Assembly (NCBI GenBank): GCA_014728035.1
Contig: WJMJ01000131.1
Location: 1 to 64,000 of the forward strand
Direction: 5' to 3'
From: Promethearchaeota archaeon
GTDB taxonomy: Archaea > Asgardarchaeota > Thorarchaeia > Thorarchaeales > Thorarchaeaceae
DNA length: 64,000 nucleotides
The position numbers and the translations under genes were made by a program. This document shows positions 281 through 10,154 of this stretch, piece by piece. Numbering within the stretch: position 1 is the stretch's first letter; every line of letters begins with the position of its first letter. Under the pieces are notes generated by a model. The model saw only the letters and a program-made list of their open reading frames with translations. It did not search any database and was not told the origin of the DNA.

Positions 281-295
281 GTGAGGCCAATCTTC

Positions 296-526
296 ATGGG
301 AAATAGACTGATCGTTACAGACCCAGAGGTCATGATGGGAAAACCAGTGATTACCGGAACACGAATCACAGTTGAGATGATCTTGGACAAATTGGCAGCA
401 GGAGAAACCATCGACCAGATTCTAGAGGATTATCCTCAGTTGACCCGTGAATCGATTCTCGCAGCACTGTCCTTCGCGGCTGATGCCATGAAGACAATCA
501 CTGCATATCCGACTGAGGCGTCCTAG
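296..526 (+). CDS. DUF433 family antitoxin
   Basis: This short all-alpha protein of about 76 residues has the DUF433 signature: an N-terminal RLIVTDPEVMMGKPVITGTR stretch, then the TVEMILDKLAAGETIDQILEDYP helix-turn-helix-like part. DUF433 proteins are antitoxins, usually paired with a DUF5615 PIN-like toxin, and they bind both the toxin and their own promoter. The ATG at 296 has GAGG nine bases upstream. An alternative GTG at 281 lacks a well-placed site. The next gene is the expected partner, with its remnant start only 4 bases after this stop. Confidence 0.85.
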   Translation: MGNRLIVTDPEVMMGKPVITGTRITVEMILDKLAAGETIDQILEDYPQLTRESILAALSFAADAMKTITAYPTEAS

Positions 527-530
527 AGTT

Positions 531-885
531 GTGAATACTTGCGGACGAATGTATCGAGCAGAGTATAGTACAGAGTCTCAGAGAAAATGGTTTCAAAGTA
601 GATTACATCCTTGAATCCGCACCAGGATCTACAGACTCGACTGTACTCTCAATGGCCGAGTCTTCCCGCTCTATCTTGATGACTGCAGACAAGGACTTCG
701 GTGAATTGGTGTATCGTCAAGGGAAAGCTCATCATGGAATAATCCTGGTTAGACTGCATGGAGTTCCTAGAGAAAACAAAGTAGCAATACTAACTACAGT
801 GTTGAAAGAGCACGAAGGTAAGTTGGTAGGAGCTTTCACTGTTGTTGAACCAAATCAGGTCAGAATCAGTAGACCATCTGCATGA
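531..885 (+). pseudogene. DUF5615 PIN-like toxin, start region out of frame
   Basis: From 535 the frame encodes a complete-looking DUF5615 protein: ILADECIEQSIVQSLRENGF, then LMTADKDFGELVYRQG, then the GIILVRLHG strand. Members normally begin MKILADE with a GTG or ATG start. Here the only plausible start, GTG at 531, is one base out of frame: GTG A ATA CTT, with TGA at 532-534 in the body frame. No ATG, GTG or TTG occurs in frame before ATG 652, which would delete the first acidic metal-binding residue (the D of LADE). It is either a frameshifted toxin, an assembly indel in the A run, or a rare ATA start. Family function is RNase/nuclease toxin neutralised by DUF433. Confidence 0.75.
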
Positions 886-1050: not shown

Positions 1051-2157
1051 TTACCAGGCTGCAACAGGAATTGCTGCAACATTCTGGAAGGTCTTCAAGG
1101 ACGCAAGAATTGAGCCACCGATCCAGACGGAGTATTGGCGCTCAGGAGGAGCAATGATACGGACCTCGATGTTCTCTGGGACGAGTTCGGAAATCTCTTT
1201 GTGGAGACGTTCCTTGAGTCCTGGGAACATGGTGGAACCGCCGGAGAGTACGATGTTAGCGTACAGGTCACGTCGCAAGTCAACGTCACAAGACTTGATA
1301 GCCTCGACAATGTGTTCGTCAAGAGGAATGGAGTCAAGTCCGATAGCGCTTGGGTTAAAGAACAGTTCAGGGGCCTGGAATCGCTCAGCACCTACAGTGA
1401 TAACCTCACCGTCGGGGAGCATGTATGGTTTATCCACACCAGCTTTGTCAGCAACGGAGCGTTCACGCTCGGGGTCAAGGGCAATGTAACATAATTTCTC
1501 CTTGATATCTCTGACAATTTCTTTCTCAGCACCGCTTACGAATGCATAACCTCTCTGACGGAGAAGTCTGCGCAAGTATTCGGTGATGTCTCGACCAGCC
1601 AAGTCAATACGTTTGATTGCGTGGTTGATTGAGAAACCTTCGTATACAGGAACGATGTGAGTAACACCGTCACCAGAGTCGATAACCAGACCAGTGGTTC
1701 TTCCGGACGCGTAGAGTGACAGAACAGCCTGTGTAGCCACATAGACTGCAGGGACGCCAAAGCTGTCAAACATGACAGAGGCCATACGTTCTCTGTTCTC
1801 TCGTGGGTTGAAAGGAGCTTCAGTCAGAAGGACTGGATTCTCACTAGGGTCAACTTTGAGGTCATTATAGAACGTGTATGACCAGATTTTTTCAATTGCA
1901 TCCCAGTCATCAACGACACCGTGTGTAATAGGATAGACTAGTCGAAGAACACCACGGAGGTTAATTGCCTCCTCACCAATGTAATAGTCACGTGTGTAGT
2001 GATCGACGTCAGTCATAATAGACTCATAACGTGGATAACCAATGAGTGTTGGCCATACACTGCGTGGTTGGTCCTCGCCTGCATATCCGTTTTTGCTCAA
2101 ACCAGTGCCATTATCAATGACAACGGGTTTGGCACCAAGAAATTCATCTTCAGCCAT
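1051..2157 (-). CDS. Asgard actin (Lokiactin-type)
   Basis: This is a polymerising ATPase of the eukaryote-like cytoskeleton. The 368 residues (eukaryotic actin ~375) carry phosphate 1 (VVIDNGTG ~12-19), [17 protein letters not shown], phosphate 2 ([12 protein letters not shown]), the connecting segments ([21 protein letters not shown]), the adenosine loop ([11 protein letters not shown]) and [21 protein letters not shown]. These are close to true actin and far from MreB or crenactin. The DNase loop is rewritten, and the C-terminus stops soon after the TFQ position with AAIPVAAW, lacking the usual WI...KCF tail. It is monocistronic, with a TATA box and dyad upstream. Profilin and gelsolin partners, known in Asgards, are not in this window. 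Confidence 0.97.
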
Positions 2158-2500
2158 TTTATTTCGGTCCTCGCTTTGTGCAAGTCACAGAATCTAGATT
2201 CTTAACGAGAAGTCTCTGTGTTACTTAACGATACGCTTGAGCGTATTTAAGCCTTGTCTGGATTGGTTCGAAAAATCGACGTTTTTCATTAGATATATAT
2301 GATATATATGTATGTATTGTTTTTAATTACGCATCACAGAACCGCCGTAGAAGGCTAAGAAATACGAAATAGTATTACGAAATCAGGTATTCGAAAACCC
2401 CCAGTAACATATATATTGTTATTATATGTATCTATGGAATGAATTCCTTCACGGAGGATCACTCCAAAGAACCCACAGAATCCGTTAGGAGCACCATACG
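2158..2500. other. Divergent intergenic region, AT-rich
   Basis: This stretch separates actin from the CARF-like operon. Besides the actin promoter it holds AT-alternating runs (about 2292-2320 and 2407-2432) and a dyad ACATATA-N9-TATATGT at 2407-2413/2423-2429. The dyad sits about 75-95 bases before the ATG at 2501 and could overlap that operon's TATA box. I found no tRNA- or snoRNA-like fold by eye. Confidence 0.4.
2231..2250 (-). promoter_or_regulatory. Actin promoter: TATA box with overlapping dyad
   Basis: Read on the minus strand, TTAAATA (2244-2250) is a good archaeal TATA box about 90 bases before the actin ATG, predicting transcription from about 2220. It overlaps a perfect 7-bp inverted repeat, ATACGCT-TG-AGCGTAT (2231-2246), at the downstream edge of the TATA. 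That is the position where a repressor would block TBP or polymerase. Confidence 0.55.
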
Positions 2501-3295
2501 ATGATTTGGAAACCAGCCGACCAACTAGTACGAGAGGAAGTAGAGTCAGTACGAGCAAGAAGAGTCATTCTTGACCAACTAGAGAGTGGTTCCAAGACTG
2601 GGAACGAATTAAGAGAGGCAATTAGAAAAGATATGATGGCACTAGCTGTAAAATCCGGAGTGAGAAAACCGGATCCGGCAGATTATGTAGTAACAGACCC
2701 AAAATTGTATTTTAACACAAAACACCTAGAGAATATAGGTCTGATTCAGAGTCAGAAAGTGTCCAAGCAAAGAGTTTTCCAACTTACACCCCCAGCAATT
2801 CAGCCTGTGCGAAGAGTACTTGAAATCACAAGGAAAAATATTCTGATTACTTCACTTGTAGAACCTGCTGACGCACGACCACTTATCGGATGGTATTGCA
2901 AGGAGAGAAGGTTTTCATTCAAGCAGCTTCATGTGGTGGTTGAGATGGAGAGGTTTCAACGAGGGGTTTCAAAGAATTTAGAGAGATATATTCCTGATGG
3001 AAGCATAAGGAAAATACGTGATCAATGGCATGAGCTCCCTCTCGAGATTGCAGGAGAATTTGGCGGAGGGAAACAAGGAGATCTTCGTTTAACATATAAC
3101 GCATTAGAAGCAATAATCTTTCAAGATATCAGAGAGTATAATATCATTCTTGATGGTTCATTAGGTCCACCAGTAATCAGCATGGCAATGATGTTGCTAT
3201 CGTCACATTACTCATTAGACATGATATATGTCAGAGAATATGCGGGGAAGGATTCCGATATTCAGAGGGTAACAGCTTTGGAGGTGGTAGATTGA
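2501..3295 (+). CDS. Winged-helix protein with C-terminal CARF-like domain
   Basis: Residues ~15-100 look like an ArsR-type winged helix (VILDQLESGSKTGNELREAI, a recognition-helix region, then KHLENIGLIQSQKVSKQRVF as the wing). Residues ~112-250 alternate strand and helix in Rossmann fashion: NILITSLVE, PLIGWYCKER, LHVVVE, then YNIILDGSLGPPVISMAMML and LDMIYV. The last pair resembles the CARF motif in which a strand ends in a small-residue turn before a helix (D-x-S/T-G-G-x-K). CARF domains bind cyclic oligonucleotides and usually sit N-terminal to the HTH; here the order is reversed. AGGAG precedes the ATG by 9 bases. The stop overlaps the start of the RNase III-like gene, so the two are co-translated. 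The fold call is by eye. Confidence 0.5.
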   Translation: MIWKPADQLVREEVESVRARRVILDQLESGSKTGNELREAIRKDMMALAVKSGVRKPDPADYVVTDPKLYFNTKHLENIGLIQSQKVSKQRVFQLTPPAIQPVRRVLEITRKNILITSLVEPADARPLIGWYCKERRFSFKQLHVVVEMERFQRGVSKNLERYIPDGSIRKIRDQWHELPLEIAGEFGGGKQGDLRLTYNALEAIIFQDIREYNIILDGSLGPPVISMAMMLLSSHYSLDMIYVREYAGKDSDIQRVTALEVVD

Positions 3296-3966
3296 ATATC
3301 GAAAAGAAGTTGTCTTGGAAAAAGATTGATCTGATGAATAGGTTACACAAGTTAGAAAAAACGATTCAAGACGACCTGAAAAGAACACCACCACAAAATA
3401 CTAGGACAATACAAAAATTTGCTAGATGGCTTGAGCAACTGCAATATATCTTTTCAAAGATTCAGAGTATCAATACCCAAGTCATACCAAAAGTGGAGAA
3501 AGCTTTAGGAATAAAATTGAAAGATAAAGAGCAAGTGGTTATTGCACTCTTTCAGCCAAGTACAAGGAATCTGTTTTTGGAAACTAAGACCCATTTTTAT
3601 GGAGAGGATATATTTTCGACGAATTTCTTCGATATTCTATCAACACTAAGCGATAGAGCTGAGCTGTTGGCTTTAATTGGAGATGCTGCAATTTCACTCA
3701 GCGTTATCCACTATATTTGGCCTCCAGCAGAGATTAGCGCAGGTTCACTCACATTACAAAGAGCTGATATTGTTAGTAATGAACACATGAGTGAGATTTG
3801 TGACAAATGGGAATTATACGAACATAGAATTCACTTTGATCCAGGAGAGCCTTCGCAAACGGAGATGAATCATGATAAAGGCACATTGCTGGAAGCAATC
3901 TATGGCATAATCTATCTGAATTACGGATACGATAAGACTAGAGAGTTAGTCAAGCATATTCTATGA
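3292..3966 (+). CDS. RNase III-like domain protein
   Basis: An N-terminal helical/coiled region (1-80) precedes an RNase III endonuclease-like domain (~85-224). RAELLALIGDAAISLSV matches the signature helix (ERLEFLGDAVL, with the acidic E and D retained). RADIVSNEHMSEICDKWEL matches RAxLVSNxxLA. LLEAIYGIIYLNYGY matches FEALIGAIYLDGG. The conserved Asp three residues before the last catalytic Glu (ADxxEA) is Thr here (GTLLEA), so a metal ligand seems altered. There is no dsRNA-binding domain. Translation starts at TTG (3292), inside the upstream stop (TTGA), behind a strong GGAGGTG. RNase III is uncommon in archaea. Function is unknown: RNA processing or a degenerate RNA-binding role. Confidence 0.6.
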   Translation: MNIEKKLSWKKIDLMNRLHKLEKTIQDDLKRTPPQNTRTIQKFARWLEQLQYIFSKIQSINTQVIPKVEKALGIKLKDKEQVVIALFQPSTRNLFLETKTHFYGEDIFSTNFFDILSTLSDRAELLALIGDAAISLSVIHYIWPPAEISAGSLTLQRADIVSNEHMSEICDKWELYEHRIHFDPGEPSQTEMNHDKGTLLEAIYGIIYLNYGYDKTRELVKHIL

Positions 3967-3969
3967 TAA

Positions 3970-5535
3970 TTAGGTCTCGGTCATGTCATATTCATCCTGT
4001 CGATATCGAGCCTTTCTTTTCAAAGGATACATTTTGTTGAATCGGTCCCGAATCTCTCCAGCAATTTCAGGATCCGAATATACTCTCACCGAGGGTATTG
4101 TGCGTTTCTGTTGACGGAGAGCATGAATTATCGGTTTGCCTTCCTGAGCCTTTTTCAGGCGGACAATCTCAATTCCGCTCTTCTCGCCCCCAACCAAGAG
4201 AGGGATACGTCCAAGACTCTTCTCACCCAATTCTGGGTTTACCACATCGATAATTACCTTACCGATATCGTCCCCTAGTTCAACCTCATTATCAATGAGA
4301 GTTTCGATATCAGATAACATCTTCATAAAGAGATTACGCGTATCATCCTCAAAGGACAAAAGTGGACGGGATAGAACTACTTTGAAGAGTCGTCTATAAC
4401 GTATCCGAGCAGCATACTCGCGAATAAAATCGGTTTCCGATTCTTTTAGCCAAGCGTAGAGATCGGAGTCAGTCATTCGTGTAAAAAGACCGATACACTC
4501 ATTCTTTGTCAGCTCTTCCTCTTTCATTCGAAAATAGGTAGCCTTGGACACAAGAGATTCTGCAACACGTACTGCGTGGTGAAGGTATAGACTTGCAAAC
4601 ATCCAATTCCGGCTTAGGGTCAGTGCTTCTAGAGAATGTAATGCCTTGAGCATAAATGCACGATGATATTTTCCTCGGCCGTCACGTACAACTCGGTTTG
4701 TTAGCAACACCCGTTCTGCTGGAAACACACCTAATTGTACACCACTAAAATGAGCATCACGAATGAGATAATCTGTCTTGTCAATATCAAGAGGACTATC
4801 AATGAAATCAGAAAGTAGCATCAGAACTGGATCCTTTGACCTGCGTTTAAGCACATCAACTACTGTTTTTGGCTCAATATCATGACGTTCAAGGATTTCA
4901 GTGACACCACTATTTAGAATCAAGAAAGCTCCGAGATCGGTATGATCAAGACCAGACCAGCTTTCCAATGCAAATTCAATCGTATGAGATGTGGGCGGGT
5001 GACCTACATCATGAAGTAAAGCCGCTGCACGAAACACTTTCTGCTGGTAATCATCCAACAATTGAGAAAGAGGGCTGAAGCACACATTGTCAAGGTCATC
5101 ACAATAATTCACTACACGGACACATTTCTGAGCAAGAAAATTAGTTCCAAGACAATGCTGAAATCTTGTATGTGTAGCTCCAGGGTAGACTATATGTGCG
5201 GGTCCAAGTTGTTTTACAAATCGCAGTCTCAAAATCTCCCACCCGGAAACCAAATCTAGCTCCCACGGATCAAAAATAATAGCACCATGAACGGGATCTT
5301 GAATTGCTTTCTGTCTAGAATGGGCCTCGGTCTTTGAAAGTAATTTCGAGTGGTCAGATTGAATTCGTTGGATTTGTTTCCAAATTTTATCTTTCTTTTT
5401 CCGTGCATCAACTAGTTCTGATTCACGCATGCCAGTGACACGAACTAATTTCACAGTTTCAACATCAACTGGTTGGTCAGCAACAAACCCATGTGACGTT
5501 GTACTCTTTTCGCGCCCGGATTGTTTCTTGGGCAT
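3970..5535 (-). CDS. HD-domain phosphohydrolase (dNTPase/SAMHD1-like)
   Basis: This is a predicted metal-dependent phosphohydrolase acting on nucleotides, of the dGTPase/SAMHD1-like HD family (521 aa). Motifs run in family order: HTRFQHCLGT (first His, residue ~130), AALLHDVGHPPTSHT (HD pair) and DSPLDIDKTDYLIRDAHFSG (final Asp and the DxxDYLxRD segment). I chose the ATG at 5535 (MPKKQSG) because GGGAG lies about 10 bases upstream and the longer frame adds residues with no family match. It converges with the RNase III-like gene, the two stops 4 bases apart. Substrate is not determinable here; a housekeeping dNTP or an antiviral role are both possible. Confidence 0.85.
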   Translation of the reverse strand: MPKKQSGREKSTTSHGFVADQPVDVETVKLVRVTGMRESELVDARKKKDKIWKQIQRIQSDHSKLLSKTEAHSRQKAIQDPVHGAIIFDPWELDLVSGWEILRLRFVKQLGPAHIVYPGATHTRFQHCLGTNFLAQKCVRVVNYCDDLDNVCFSPLSQLLDDYQQKVFRAAALLHDVGHPPTSHTIEFALESWSGLDHTDLGAFLILNSGVTEILERHDIEPKTVVDVLKRRSKDPVLMLLSDFIDSPLDIDKTDYLIRDAHFSGVQLGVFPAERVLLTNRVVRDGRGKYHRAFMLKALHSLEALTLSRNWMFASLYLHHAVRVAESLVSKATYFRMKEEELTKNECIGLFTRMTDSDLYAWLKESETDFIREYAARIRYRRLFKVVLSRPLLSFEDDTRNLFMKMLSDIETLIDNEVELGDDIGKVIIDVVNPELGEKSLGRIPLLVGGEKSGIEIVRLKKAQEGKPIIHALRQQKRTIPSVRVYSDPEIAGEIRDRFNKMYPLKRKARYRQDEYDMTET

Positions 5536-5587
5536 AGAACATACTCCCGATGATGGATAAAAGAATAGTAGTATATAAGACAGCCCG

Positions 5588-6274: not shown

Positions 6275-7282
6275 ATGATTGATCTCGTAAAGACTTCAGA
6301 AGTAATGTTCAGGGAAGCAATCACATCAATAGAGCTTACTGATTTAACACGAGATGGAAAGCAAGAGTTGGTAATAACCACAATGAATGGAGATCTTAGA
6401 GTCTTTCATTTAGGTTCAGGAACCCAGGAAGAAGTTTCTGAGGTTTGTAAGACAGGGGGGCTTCCACCAGTTGCAGCAGTAGGTTTTGGAGATATATTAG
6501 ATAATGAAATAGACGAACTTGTAGTAGGTACACTTGATAATATGCTCCAAGTGATTGTATTTGATGGAAAGGAGTTATCTAGCAAAGCAAGCACACCCTT
6601 GGGAACATTGCCCACGGCAATATGTGTGACAAATGTAATGGGAGAAAAAGGAGCTGAAGTAATCGTATCCACTAATGACAAAGCACTTCGTTGTTACGGA
6701 TGGTTTTACTCATGTCTTGATAAACTCGCTCACAAGGTGGTTGAAAGACCAACTTTTTCAATGGCACCTCTTAGAAGTAAAGGACTGCCATATAGCAGAT
6801 TTGTCTTCGGGGATGAAGTGGGTTATCTGTATGTATATCAATATGCAGATGATAGATTACATGAGATTGCGAAAAGAAAAGTGGGTGGAGAAATCATGAG
6901 AGTTGCAACTGGAAATATCAATGCTGATCGTAATTACGAGATAGCAACCGTATCAGATGGAAATATCCTAACCCTCTTTGGAATTGGTAAGAACGAGCTT
7001 GAAGCAATAGCCAAGTACAAAACAAATTCGCCAATCACATCTTTACGGTTTAGTCATTTGTACGGAGAACCGGAAGATACCCAATTAGTTCTAAGCCTTG
7101 GCGACTCAACTATCCATGTATTAGAATTGAACGAGTCTGGATTCACTGCAAAAGGCAAAATACGGACCATGAAAAAGTCAATTGAATCAATGATAGCAGT
7201 AGGAGATATCAATGGAGATGGAAACAGGGAGATTGTCCAAGCAGTAGGGAACAATCTCTCCATTATTCGTCCAAAATTTTGA
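6275..7282 (+). CDS. FG-GAP/VCBS-type beta-propeller protein
   Basis: This predicted cytosolic beta-propeller (335 aa, no signal peptide) is built of about seven repeats ending in D-x-D-G-D-G-like calcium loops: LTDLTRDGKQELVI, GDILDNEIDELVVG, GNINADRNYEIATV and the best one, GDINGDGNREIVQ near the C-terminus. Such integrin-alpha-N/FG-GAP propellers are protein-interaction scaffolds. The lack of secretion or membrane signals argues for an internal role, as with eukaryotic ITFG2- or BBS-type propellers, but that link is only analogy. It converges with the next gene, its stop directly abutting that gene's stop. Confidence 0.75.
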   Translation: MIDLVKTSEVMFREAITSIELTDLTRDGKQELVITTMNGDLRVFHLGSGTQEEVSEVCKTGGLPPVAAVGFGDILDNEIDELVVGTLDNMLQVIVFDGKELSSKASTPLGTLPTAICVTNVMGEKGAEVIVSTNDKALRCYGWFYSCLDKLAHKVVERPTFSMAPLRSKGLPYSRFVFGDEVGYLYVYQYADDRLHEIAKRKVGGEIMRVATGNINADRNYEIATVSDGNILTLFGIGKNELEAIAKYKTNSPITSLRFSHLYGEPEDTQLVLSLGDSTIHVLELNESGFTAKGKIRTMKKSIESMIAVGDINGDGNREIVQAVGNNLSIIRPKF

Positions 7283-7766: not shown

Positions 7767-8372
7767 TTACTCCGTATTTGGTTCTAGCAATTCTTGTTGA
7801 TAGTGATAATACCGATAAGCTGCAGTAAAAACCCCCATAATTGTTACAAGTACTAGACCCCATAGCAAAAAGCCAACCAGTGAAAAAATCACAAGTGTGA
7901 GAAGTCGTTCTGACCTTCCACCAAGACCAACATCTAAATCCCGTACTCCGACAGATTCAGCTCGCGACCGTGTATAACTGGTAAGAAGCCACCCAAATAA
8001 ACAGAGAAAGCTCCAAGCTGGAACAGATAGGGACAGAATTGTTTCGGAAGAATAGGTTAACAGAATAGCAAACAAAATTAGCATCTCAGCTACCTTATCT
8101 ACCACAGAATCGATAAATCCTCCAGAGTGCGATTTTCTTGAACCCAATCGAGCAACAGCCCCATCAACACCATCGAATAGGCCAACCAAAAAAACAAGAA
8201 ATGCGAATAATGGTTGCCAGTAGGTTACTTGCAGGGTGAGAAAAGCAATAAGTGAAAGAAGGAGGGTGAAATAAGTAACTGTGTTGGGATGTATATTTCG
8301 AGAAACAAGAGGTCTTGCAATAGCAATTACCACGCTGCGAAATAATCCGCGAACTCGAAATTTACTTGGCAT
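7767..8372 (-). CDS. CDP-alcohol phosphatidyltransferase
   Basis: This integral membrane enzyme transfers a phosphoalcohol between a CDP-activated donor and an acceptor. The catalytic signature D-x2-D-G-x2-A-R-x8-G-x3-D-x3-D is complete (DGVDGAVARL ... GGFIDSVVDK, residues ~76-105), within about six membrane spans. The ATG at 8372 has GAGGTTAG upstream and follows the neighbouring stop by 4 bases. Pairing with a nucleotidyltransferase mirrors the inositol-phosphate modules (archaetidylinositol-phosphate or di-inositol-phosphate synthesis), so an inositol phospholipid or related product is likely but not proven. Confidence 0.88.
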   Translation of the reverse strand: MPSKFRVRGLFRSVVIAIARPLVSRNIHPNTVTYFTLLLSLIAFLTLQVTYWQPLFAFLVFLVGLFDGVDGAVARLGSRKSHSGGFIDSVVDKVAEMLILFAILLTYSSETILSLSVPAWSFLCLFGWLLTSYTRSRAESVGVRDLDVGLGGRSERLLTLVIFSLVGFLLWGLVLVTIMGVFTAAYRYYHYQQELLEPNTE

Positions 8373-8376
8373 TATT

Positions 8377-9408
8377 CTAACCTCTGAGTATATGATTTTT
8401 ATGAACAACTGCATCTTGAATGTGACTATTAGCAGCTACTTCGGTATCACCAGTGGTTAGAACATTTCTAAGAACACTATTACGTTTCACCGAGGTTTTT
8501 GCCCCAAGACTGACATAAGGTCCAATCTTACATCCTTCTTCTATGATACAGTCTTTGTCCACACAGACAGGACCATGAAATGATACACCTTGATGCAATG
8601 CAATACCATTGTGGAGTTGCAAAGTATCACCAAGTTCCATAGTATCACCAATAGGAATCAAAATCGATGCGGTGCCTTGTATATGTGATTCGAGGAAATA
8701 TTTAGATCCTCTTAGAAGTGCTGAGTGTGTGTCAATATCAAAACACAAGCCATCTACAGGTGTGGATTTTACCTTGGCACCTTGAGAGATAAAATGATTG
8801 AGAGCTTGACTCACATGGGAGTATCCTTTCCTCAAAGCAGTAGTAAAAGAAGGGAATAAGTCACGTTTTAGTGATAGAAGCATCGCAGAAGATAGTGATT
8901 TCGAGGCGGATTCCACATCTTTGCCAATTCCCAGGATATAACCAGAATCATCAAGATGGATTTGAGGCTTATGTGTGGAGGATAAAACACCCAGAAGAGC
9001 ACTAGAAGACATCTCACTTGAAGCACATTCGAGAAAAGACCTGACAATATCAGAAGTAACTACTAAATCAGAAGGAACTACTAGAACTCTGTGCTCTTTG
9101 GTTTTGCCCAATGAAGAAACCAGTGTTTGAAGTGGTCCATTTCTATAGTTAGAAACCTCAATAAATTCTACTTTTTCGGAGATTTTCAATTCAGTAACTG
9201 CTTCTTGTATCTGTTTTCCTTTGTATCCAAGACCTACAGTAATTTTGTTAACGCCAGCATTCAAACAGGAGGTGATAAGCTGCTCAATCAGAGAAATGCC
9301 ACATATCCGAATCAATGGCTTAGGGATGTTTTCCGTGATTGGATTCAATCTCTTTCCTCGTCCAGCAGCCAAGATAATTGCACGAATCGTAAGAACCTCC
9401 GAAAGCAA
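8377..9408 (-). CDS. Sugar/inositol-phosphate nucleotidyltransferase with left-handed beta-helix
   Basis: The N-terminal GT-A nucleotidyltransferase domain begins IRAIILAAGRGKRLNPITEN and continues with IPKPLI (substrate-activating Lys). The C-terminal ~100 residues are hexapeptide repeats (IGPYVSLGAKTSVKRNSVLR), as in GlmU-like enzymes. It activates a sugar- or polyol-phosphate with an NTP, probably for the adjacent CDP-alcohol transferase. Start choice is odd: GGAGGTT lies 7 bases before ATT (9385-9387), which would give the canonical I-R-A-I-I-L start, whereas the recorded TTG at 9408 places that site inside the gene. Confidence 0.8.
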   Translation of the reverse strand: MLSEVLTIRAIILAAGRGKRLNPITENIPKPLIRICGISLIEQLITSCLNAGVNKITVGLGYKGKQIQEAVTELKISEKVEFIEVSNYRNGPLQTLVSSLGKTKEHRVLVVPSDLVVTSDIVRSFLECASSEMSSSALLGVLSSTHKPQIHLDDSGYILGIGKDVESASKSLSSAMLLSLKRDLFPSFTTALRKGYSHVSQALNHFISQGAKVKSTPVDGLCFDIDTHSALLRGSKYFLESHIQGTASILIPIGDTMELGDTLQLHNGIALHQGVSFHGPVCVDKDCIIEEGCKIGPYVSLGAKTSVKRNSVLRNVLTTGDTEVAANSHIQDAVVHKNHILRG

Positions 9409-9440
9409 GATAATGTGCCTTTGATGTAACCTTCATATGT

Positions 9441-10154
9441 ATGTTTGTTCATTCAAAAGTTGTGATTCCTGTGACAGCTGAAATCATTGTAGCAACTGAG
9501 GAAAACTATGATGATGCCATAGAAAAAGGGGTAGAAGTACTTCAAAATGGTGGAATTGTGGTCTATCCCACTGATACGAGCTATGGAATAGCCTGTGATC
9601 CCCGAAATGAAGATGCAATTTCAAGATTACTTGCAATAAAACAAAGAGATGCAGGAATGGGAGTGCCATTACTTTTTTCGGATCTCGATCAATGTGAGAA
9701 ATATGCAGATATGGGTAGCCTCGAAAAAGTTCTTGCAAGACTGTTTTGGCCAGGTATGCTCACAATGGTAGTAACTCCAATAGATAGTCTTCCATCGCAT
9801 ATCACTGGAAACAGAACATCTCTAGCAATCCGCATTCCGAATCATCCAGTTCCAAGAGGATTAGCAAAAGGGTTGGGAGCCCCAATAGTTGGAACGAGTG
9901 CAAACAGGACAGGTGGACCAAGTCCGTTCATAGTTGATACAGCTCGAGAGCAATTAGGAGATGAGGTTGACCTCTATATTGATTGTGGACCTTCTGAATC
10001 AGAGAAAAACTCGACCATTATTGGTGTTGAGGACGGAAGTATCAAAGTATATCGAGAAGGACAACTAAGCATAAGTGAAATGTCTGAATCATTAAAGGTA
10101 GATTCTGATGCCTTGAAACTCTGGACTACAAGAATTGTCTATGCAGATATGTGA
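9441..10154 (+). CDS. L-threonylcarbamoyladenylate synthase (YrdC/Sua5)
   Basis: Makes threonylcarbamoyl-AMP from Thr, bicarbonate and ATP, the first step of tRNA t6A37 synthesis. The protein of 237 residues is a YrdC domain: GGIVVYPTDTSYGIACDPRN, AIKQRDAGMGVPLLFSDL, LFWPGMLTMV, RTSLAIRIPNHP and GAPIVGTSANRTGGPSPF are all family motifs. It lacks the full C-terminal Sua5 domain. A KEOPS subunit (Cgi121) lies 550 bases downstream on the other strand and another (Pcc1) at 32.7 kb, completing part of the t6A pathway. It overlaps the THUMP gene by a few codons. Confidence 0.93.
   Translation: MFVHSKVVIPVTAEIIVATEENYDDAIEKGVEVLQNGGIVVYPTDTSYGIACDPRNEDAISRLLAIKQRDAGMGVPLLFSDLDQCEKYADMGSLEKVLARLFWPGMLTMVVTPIDSLPSHITGNRTSLAIRIPNHPVPRGLAKGLGAPIVGTSANRTGGPSPFIVDTAREQLGDEVDLYIDCGPSESEKNSTIIGVEDGSIKVYREGQLSISEMSESLKVDSDALKLWTTRIVYADM

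What the first reader, a model, noticed from the sequence alone, without database searches (positions are those of the whole stretch)
2501..3966. Candidate undescribed two-gene system: winged-helix/CARF-like protein translationally coupled to an RNase III-like protein
The two genes overlap (TTGA) behind a strong GGAGGTG, so they are made together. The first looks like a DNA-binding sensor with a C-terminal CARF-like Rossmann domain, in the reverse order of Csa3-type regulators. The second is a lone RNase III fold, rare in archaea, without a dsRNA-binding domain. A ligand-sensing regulator paired with an RNA-cutting or RNA-binding domain resembles the logic of cyclic-nucleotide-activated RNases, but with an RNase III fold instead of HEPN. 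An HD phosphohydrolase and a PriL-like protein lie alongside. No CRISPR array is present, so any signal molecule would have another source.
Basis: partly seen in the sequence, partly recalled or inferred. Interest (0 to 1): 0.75.

Follow-up and report, generated by a model that had tools for sequence, protein, structure and literature searches.

The report
Actin-linked CARF regulator with RNase III-like partner
In Asgard archaea, the closest known archaeal relatives of eukaryotes, a ligand-sensing DNA-binding protein of a kind known from antiviral CRISPR systems sits back to back with the actin gene in at least eight families, and in Thorarchaeia it shares an operon with a slimmed-down RNase III, which points to a housekeeping regulator rather than a defence system.

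Summary
Window 2501-3295 (P1) encodes an N-terminal winged helix plus a C-terminal CARF domain; 3292-3966 (P2) encodes an RNase III fold without a dsRNA-binding domain. They overlap by four bases and are adjacent in essentially every Thorarchaeia genome; both are under purifying selection. 'A two-gene cyclic-nucleotide-activated RNase system' is not the best reading. (1) P1 is an Asgard-wide CARF_m5 protein; outside Thorarchaeia it occurs without P2. Its most consistent divergent neighbour is the actin gene, in eight families, inside an old synteny block with lipid-headgroup genes. (2) P2 also occurs alone, patchily, in other Asgard families. It has the Mini-III active-site signature (A-D-T-E; both catalytic acids in 44/44 sequences). 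It is the only RNase III in Thorarchaeia, although RNase III is common in Asgard. (3) Cas10 is absent from this genome and most Thorarchaeia; the basic residue after the CARF loop (R/K, 14/14 elsewhere) is absent in Thorarchaeia, the lineage with P2. Best explanation: P1 is a ligand-responsive transcriptional regulator of its own operon and the divergent actin gene; P2 is a co-expressed Mini-III-like dsRNA endonuclease. Domains and synteny are shown; regulation, ligand and RNA target are inferred.

The parts
2501..3295 (+). P1: PadR/ArsR-like winged helix (about residues 16-96) followed by a CARF domain (about 111-258), family CARF_m5
3292..3966 (+). P2: N-terminal helical region plus RNase III domain (about residues 87-224), Mini-III-type active site A127, D131, T198, E201
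3278..3295 (+). Translation junction: GGAGGTG ribosome-binding site, then P1 stop and P2 TTG start overlapping by four bases
1051..2157 (-). Actin (Asgard actin, PF00022 1.4e-121), divergently transcribed from P1; conserved arrangement in eight Asgard families
2158..2500 (.). Actin/P1 divergent promoter region; conserved actin TATA element (CTTAAATA on the minus strand, about 2244-2251) and ribosome-binding site; proposed regulatory target of P1
2288..2314 (.). AT-rich dyad about 40 bases beyond the actin TATA element, candidate operator only (weak statistical support)

Best explanation
P1 is a one-component transcriptional regulator: a dimer with N-terminal winged helices that bind DNA in the shared actin/P1 promoter region, and C-terminal CARF domains that bind a small nucleotide-like ligand and change DNA affinity. 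It sets expression of its own operon and of the divergent actin gene. In Thorarchaeia a Mini-III-like RNase III (P2), of a type that also occurs alone elsewhere in Asgard, became locked into this operon by translational coupling; it probably cuts double-stranded or structured RNA using D131 and E201 with metal ions, and takes the place of canonical RNase III, which Thorarchaeia lack. Shown by computation: domain content, folds, operon, conservation, divergent actin linkage, active-site signature, absence of Cas10. Inferred: dimerisation, DNA target, regulation of actin, ligand, RNA cleavage and its substrate.
For: P1 fold = winged helix + CARF, CARF_m5 profile 1e-15, up to 6e-56 in other Asgard members. 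Divergent adjacency to actin: 46 of 54 strong P1 hits with listed actin positions, remaining Thorarchaeia cases mostly contig ends; also in families f3, f5, f6, f9, f11, f12, f16, named as Hermod-, Jord-, Baldr-, Sigyn- and Freyarchaeota where titles are available. The winged helix is more conserved than the CARF domain (63% vs 42% identity within Thorarchaeia, 41% vs 18% to other Asgard). P1-P2 adjacency 42/43. P2 active site A/D/T/E as in Mini-III 4OUN/6TNN; D and E 44/44. P2 is the single RNase III hit in nearly every Thorarchaeia genome with a hit. Purifying selection on both genes. Cas10 palm in only 9 of 47 Thorarchaeia genomes, not in this one.
Against: No expression or binding data. 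The candidate operator is weak: dyads in the actin-side region exceed shuffles at p<0.1 in 30% of sequences (10% expected), not corrected for relatedness, and no motif was found shared between lineages. Actin-P1 adjacency is part of a wider conserved block with CDP-alcohol phosphatidyltransferase and nucleotidyltransferase genes, so it may reflect slow rearrangement, and actin is lost from the neighbourhood in f4, f24 and one f26 genome. P2 lacks two of the four canonical RNase III carboxylates.
Confidence: 0.5

Rival explanations
1. Ligand-gated RNase pair: P1 CARF senses a cyclic oligonucleotide or similar alarm and acts on P2 by contact or by induction, giving a stress or antiviral RNA-cutting response.
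For: Strict pairing and translational coupling in Thorarchaeia; CARF fold close to Card1, Cam1, Csm6; nuclease partner with both catalytic acids kept.
Against: P1 exists without P2 in other Asgard families and P2 without P1 elsewhere; near-universal and single copy in Thorarchaeia, unlike patchy defence genes; Cas10 mostly absent; the basic residue after the CARF loop, R/K in 14/14 relatives without P2, is P in 17 of 19 Thorarchaeia rows.
Confidence: 0.15
2. P1 only autoregulates its own operon or serves the lipid-headgroup block; the actin neighbour is an ancestral gene-order relic without regulatory meaning.
For: The block actin-P1-CDP-alcohol transferase-nucleotidyltransferase-Sua5 is broadly conserved, and P1 stays with it when actin has left (f24, f26).
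Against: In the f3 loci the actin-P1 pair remains while the rest of the block is gone; the divergent orientation is kept in all eight families.
Confidence: 0.25
3. P2 is a catalytically dead RNase III fold that serves as an RNA-binding or structural protein, as RNase III-like mitoribosomal proteins do. (This rival concerns P2 only and can be true together with any reading of P1.)
For: Two of four canonical carboxylates replaced, at near-invariant columns; Thorarchaeia-specific conserved motifs (FQPSTKNLFLE, RIHFDP).
Against: The same replacements (A and T) occur in active Mini-III, whose two remaining acids are kept in all 44 P2 sequences.
Confidence: 0.3

Closest known systems
Csa3-type CARF-wHTH transcription factors (Csa3a, MM_0565)
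   Same: CARF sensor joined to a winged helix; one-component DNA-binding regulator; Csa3 is among the top fold matches
   Different: Domain order reversed (Csa3 and MM_0565 are CARF then wHTH: PMC8699464, PMC7465815); no CRISPR or Cas10 link; different genomic partner (actin)
PADLOC CARF_m5 (PDLC01987), a minor CARF family
   Same: Profile matches all 33 P1 relatives, best 6e-56
   Different: The model carries no function; no hit in 14 control genomes; the paper I believe defines it (Makarova 2020) was not held, so its description could not be compared
Mini-III (class 4 RNase III, B. subtilis MrnC, 4OUN)
   Same: No dsRBD; identical four-position active-site signature A-D-T-E
   Different: P2 has an extra N-terminal helical region of about 85 residues; sequence match to 4OUN is weak (0.15), and the best matches are Drosha and bacterial RNase III
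Canonical Asgard RNase III
   Same: Homologous domain, same phylum
   Different: Canonical forms are mostly about 240 aa, several with a C-terminal dsRBD-like region by inspection, most with all four carboxylates; P2 forms a separate clade on a long branch
Csm6/Csx1 CARF-HEPN RNases
   Same: CARF sensing linked to RNA cutting as a concept
   Different: Not one polypeptide, RNase III fold instead of HEPN, no type III CRISPR linkage

Membership tests
CARF superfamily | Rossmann-like CARF fold | tested here: met
   AlphaFold2 pLDDT 90; Foldseek to Card1, Csa3, Cam1, Csm6, probability 1.00
CARF superfamily | Match to a curated CARF profile | tested here: met
   CARF_m5 1e-15 for the window protein; 33/33 members
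CARF superfamily | Ligand loop D-x-T/S-x-G-T-K/R | tested here: inconclusive
   Core kept (D218 16/19, G222 17/19) but the basic residue is absent in Thorarchaeia rows (P in 17 of 19); R/K in 14/14 other Asgard
Csa3 | CARF N-terminal, wHTH C-terminal | tested here: not met
   Order is wHTH then CARF
Csa3 | Encoded with CRISPR-Cas genes | tested here: not met
   No array in the window; actin and housekeeping neighbours
Csa3 | Binds cyclic tetra-adenylate | not testable with these tools
   Needs a binding assay
RNase III superfamily | RNase III endonuclease fold | tested here: met
   PF00636 1.5e-11; Foldseek probability 1.00
Canonical (class 1) RNase III | Four active-site carboxylates | tested here: not met
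   Positions are A127, D131, T198, E201
Canonical (class 1) RNase III | C-terminal dsRBD | tested here: not met
   Protein ends with the RNase III domain
Mini-III (class 4) | No dsRBD and A-D-T-E active site | tested here: met
Mini-III (class 4) | Single RNase III domain without additional domains | tested here: not met
   Extra N-terminal helices, residues about 14-85; definition from PMC4357697
Mini-III (class 4) | Matures 23S rRNA | not testable with these tools
   Needs an RNA assay

The most novel reading that the evidence does not exclude
Asgard archaea ancestrally control their actin cytoskeleton gene with a nucleotide-second-messenger-type (CARF) transcription factor, and Thorarchaeia added a Mini-III-like RNase III to the same regulatory unit, giving combined transcriptional and RNA-level control tied to the cytoskeleton.
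Probability: 0.2. Interest if true: 0.85.

Novelty: new variant of a known kind. Interest (0 to 1): 0.58.

Why it matters
How Asgard archaea regulate the actin they share with eukaryotes is, as far as the searches here show, unknown. A conserved sensor-type regulator back to back with the actin gene across eight families gives a specific, testable candidate, and would extend CARF sensing from antiviral defence to cell biology. The P2 family adds a second, apparently convergent use of the Mini-III active site, in an archaeal lineage without canonical RNase III.

Tried and rejected
A strong palindrome ATACGCTTGAGCGTAT over the actin TATA element in the window looked like an operator but is absent even from the same-genus genome, so it was dropped. 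A dyad further upstream is recurrent but only weakly above shuffles. A Cas10-derived ligand was rejected as the general source. A consistent partner for P2 outside Thorarchaeia was sought in 18 loci, and only closely related genomes shared neighbours. Catalytic death of P2 was considered because two acids are missing, then judged less likely after the Mini-III comparison. The first genome scan with P2 alone found nothing. Papers on a CARF protein beside Asgard actin: none found; the 2020 CARF classification paper is not held.

Full report
Observation. Window 2501-3295 (P1, 264 aa) and 3292-3966 (P2, 224 aa, TTG start) are two same-strand genes overlapping by TTGA behind GGAGGTG. The window lies in a Thorarchaeia genome: contigs of same-family genomes have the lengths of named Thorarchaeota records, for example SHMX01000010.1, 72,140 bases.

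P1. Pfam gives nothing above its cut-off for the window protein, but PADLOC CARF_m5 matches it at 1e-15 and all 33 relatives, up to 6e-56. AlphaFold2 with 33 sequences gives pLDDT 90. Foldseek finds CARF proteins first (Card1, Csa3, Cam1, Csm6) and PadR/ArsR-type winged helices (SqrR, LmrR, RosR) for the N-terminal half, all at probability 1.00. The order, winged helix then CARF, is the reverse of Csa3 and MM_0565 (PMC8699464, PMC7465815). A 2014 survey places the wHTH after CARF in most families (PMC4012209).

P2. Pfam Ribonuclease_3 1.5e-11; AlphaFold2 pLDDT 92, all-helical RNase III fold with an added N-terminal helical region and no dsRBD. The four catalytic positions read A127, D131, T198, E201. 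This is the pattern of Mini-III (4OUN: LAYIGDA and STAFEALLG), where the retained D and E are the residues substituted in 6TNN and 4OUN. Across 44 P2 sequences D and E are invariant, A is 42 of 44 and T 43 of 44. P2 forms one clade apart from canonical Asgard RNase III (support 100/99, branch 2.4), and Thorarchaeia form one clade within it (98/98).

Distribution. RNase III (PF00636) is found in 139 of 212 Asgard genomes; sampled proteins outside Thorarchaeia are mostly canonical in their catalytic residues. In Thorarchaeia P2 is the single hit in nearly every genome with one. P2 also occurs in 16 genomes of five other families (f2, f15, f17, f18, f21), in varied neighbourhoods and without P1 beside it; one copy has two internal stops and another genome holds only broken pieces. 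These families are unnamed in the data; I think they are mainly Lokiarchaeia and relatives but did not verify this (the label LOKI is mine). P1 occurs in Thorarchaeia and, without P2, in many other families, including Hermod-, Jord-, Baldr-, Sigyn- and Freyarchaeota by record title. The pattern scan of 84,980 species genomes returned only Asgard loci, but it used one strict pattern.

Genomic context. In Thorarchaeia P1 and P2 are adjacent in 42 of 43 P1 loci, and actin is divergent from P1 in 39 of 43; three of the four exceptions are contig ends or split actin, and the fourth (G153) has a wider gap of about 1.5 kb. Outside Thorarchaeia the divergent actin-P1 pair is seen in seven more families: f3, f5, f6, f9, f11, f12, f16. 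It is not seen in f4, f24 or one f26 genome, and actin lies about 3.3 kb away in the other f26 genome. The pair belongs to a wider conserved block with CDP-alcohol phosphatidyltransferase, a nucleotidyltransferase and Sua5 genes; in the f3 loci only actin-P1 survives, while in f24 and f26 P1 stays with the lipid genes. So both links are old. That a regulator often controls the gene it is divergently transcribed from is general knowledge, used here as an argument, not a test.

Ligand. Cas10 palm domains occur in 9 of 47 Thorarchaeia genomes and not in this one, whereas P1 and P2 are near universal, so Cas10-made oligoadenylates cannot be the general signal. In relatives without P2, the CARF loop reads D-V-T-x-G-T/G/S-R/K with the basic residue in 14 of 14. 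In Thorarchaeia it is mostly D-L-S-x-G-P-P and the basic residue is gone in all 19 rows listed (P 17, S 2). This suggests a changed or lost ligand mode exactly where P2 is present, which weakens the idea that a CRISPR-type signal drives P2. Csa3a, which does bind cA4, also lacks a lysine thought to be catalytic in ring nucleases (PMC8699464), so binding is not excluded.

Regulatory DNA. The intergenic region (2158-2500) has a conserved actin TATA element and ribosome-binding site in Thorarchaeia. An AT-rich dyad recurs about 130-165 bases from the actin start in many genomes, but it exceeds dinucleotide shuffles at p<0.1 in only 30% of sequences, so it is a candidate only. The winged helix is better conserved than the CARF domain, in keeping with a constrained DNA-binding role.

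Selection. dN/dS in two close pairs is about 0.10-0.12 for P1 and 0.11-0.17 for P2.

Conclusion. The better-supported unit is an Asgard CARF-type regulator divergent from actin, to which Thorarchaeia joined a Mini-III-like RNase III. Regulation of actin, the ligand and the RNA substrate remain untested inferences.

Noticed in passing
window 281-885 +: DUF433 gene followed by a DUF5615 frame, resembling a small toxin-antitoxin pair, beside the actin gene.
   Followed up: no
window 6275-7282 +: FG-GAP/BBS7-like beta-propeller protein, conserved in the Thorarchaeia neighbourhood.
   Followed up: no
window 3970-5554 -: HD plus HD_assoc_2 phosphohydrolase, convergent with P2 in nearly all Thorarchaeia loci.
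   Followed up: partly
window 7767-10154: CDP-alcohol phosphatidyltransferase, nucleotidyltransferase and Sua5 genes form an old synteny block with P1 and actin in several Asgard families.
   Followed up: partly
G000:C104:11741-12007: A second, weak CARF_m5 match in the same genome (3.5e-4).
   Followed up: no
L159 (G146) and L163 (G189): P2-like copies with internal stops or only broken pieces, suggesting decay outside Thorarchaeia.
   Followed up: partly
L119, L120 (Baldrarchaeota): Near-perfect 28-base dyad TCGATATAGACGATATCATCTATATCGA (13 of 14 in L120, 12 of 14 in L119) about 95 bases from the actin start.
   Followed up: no
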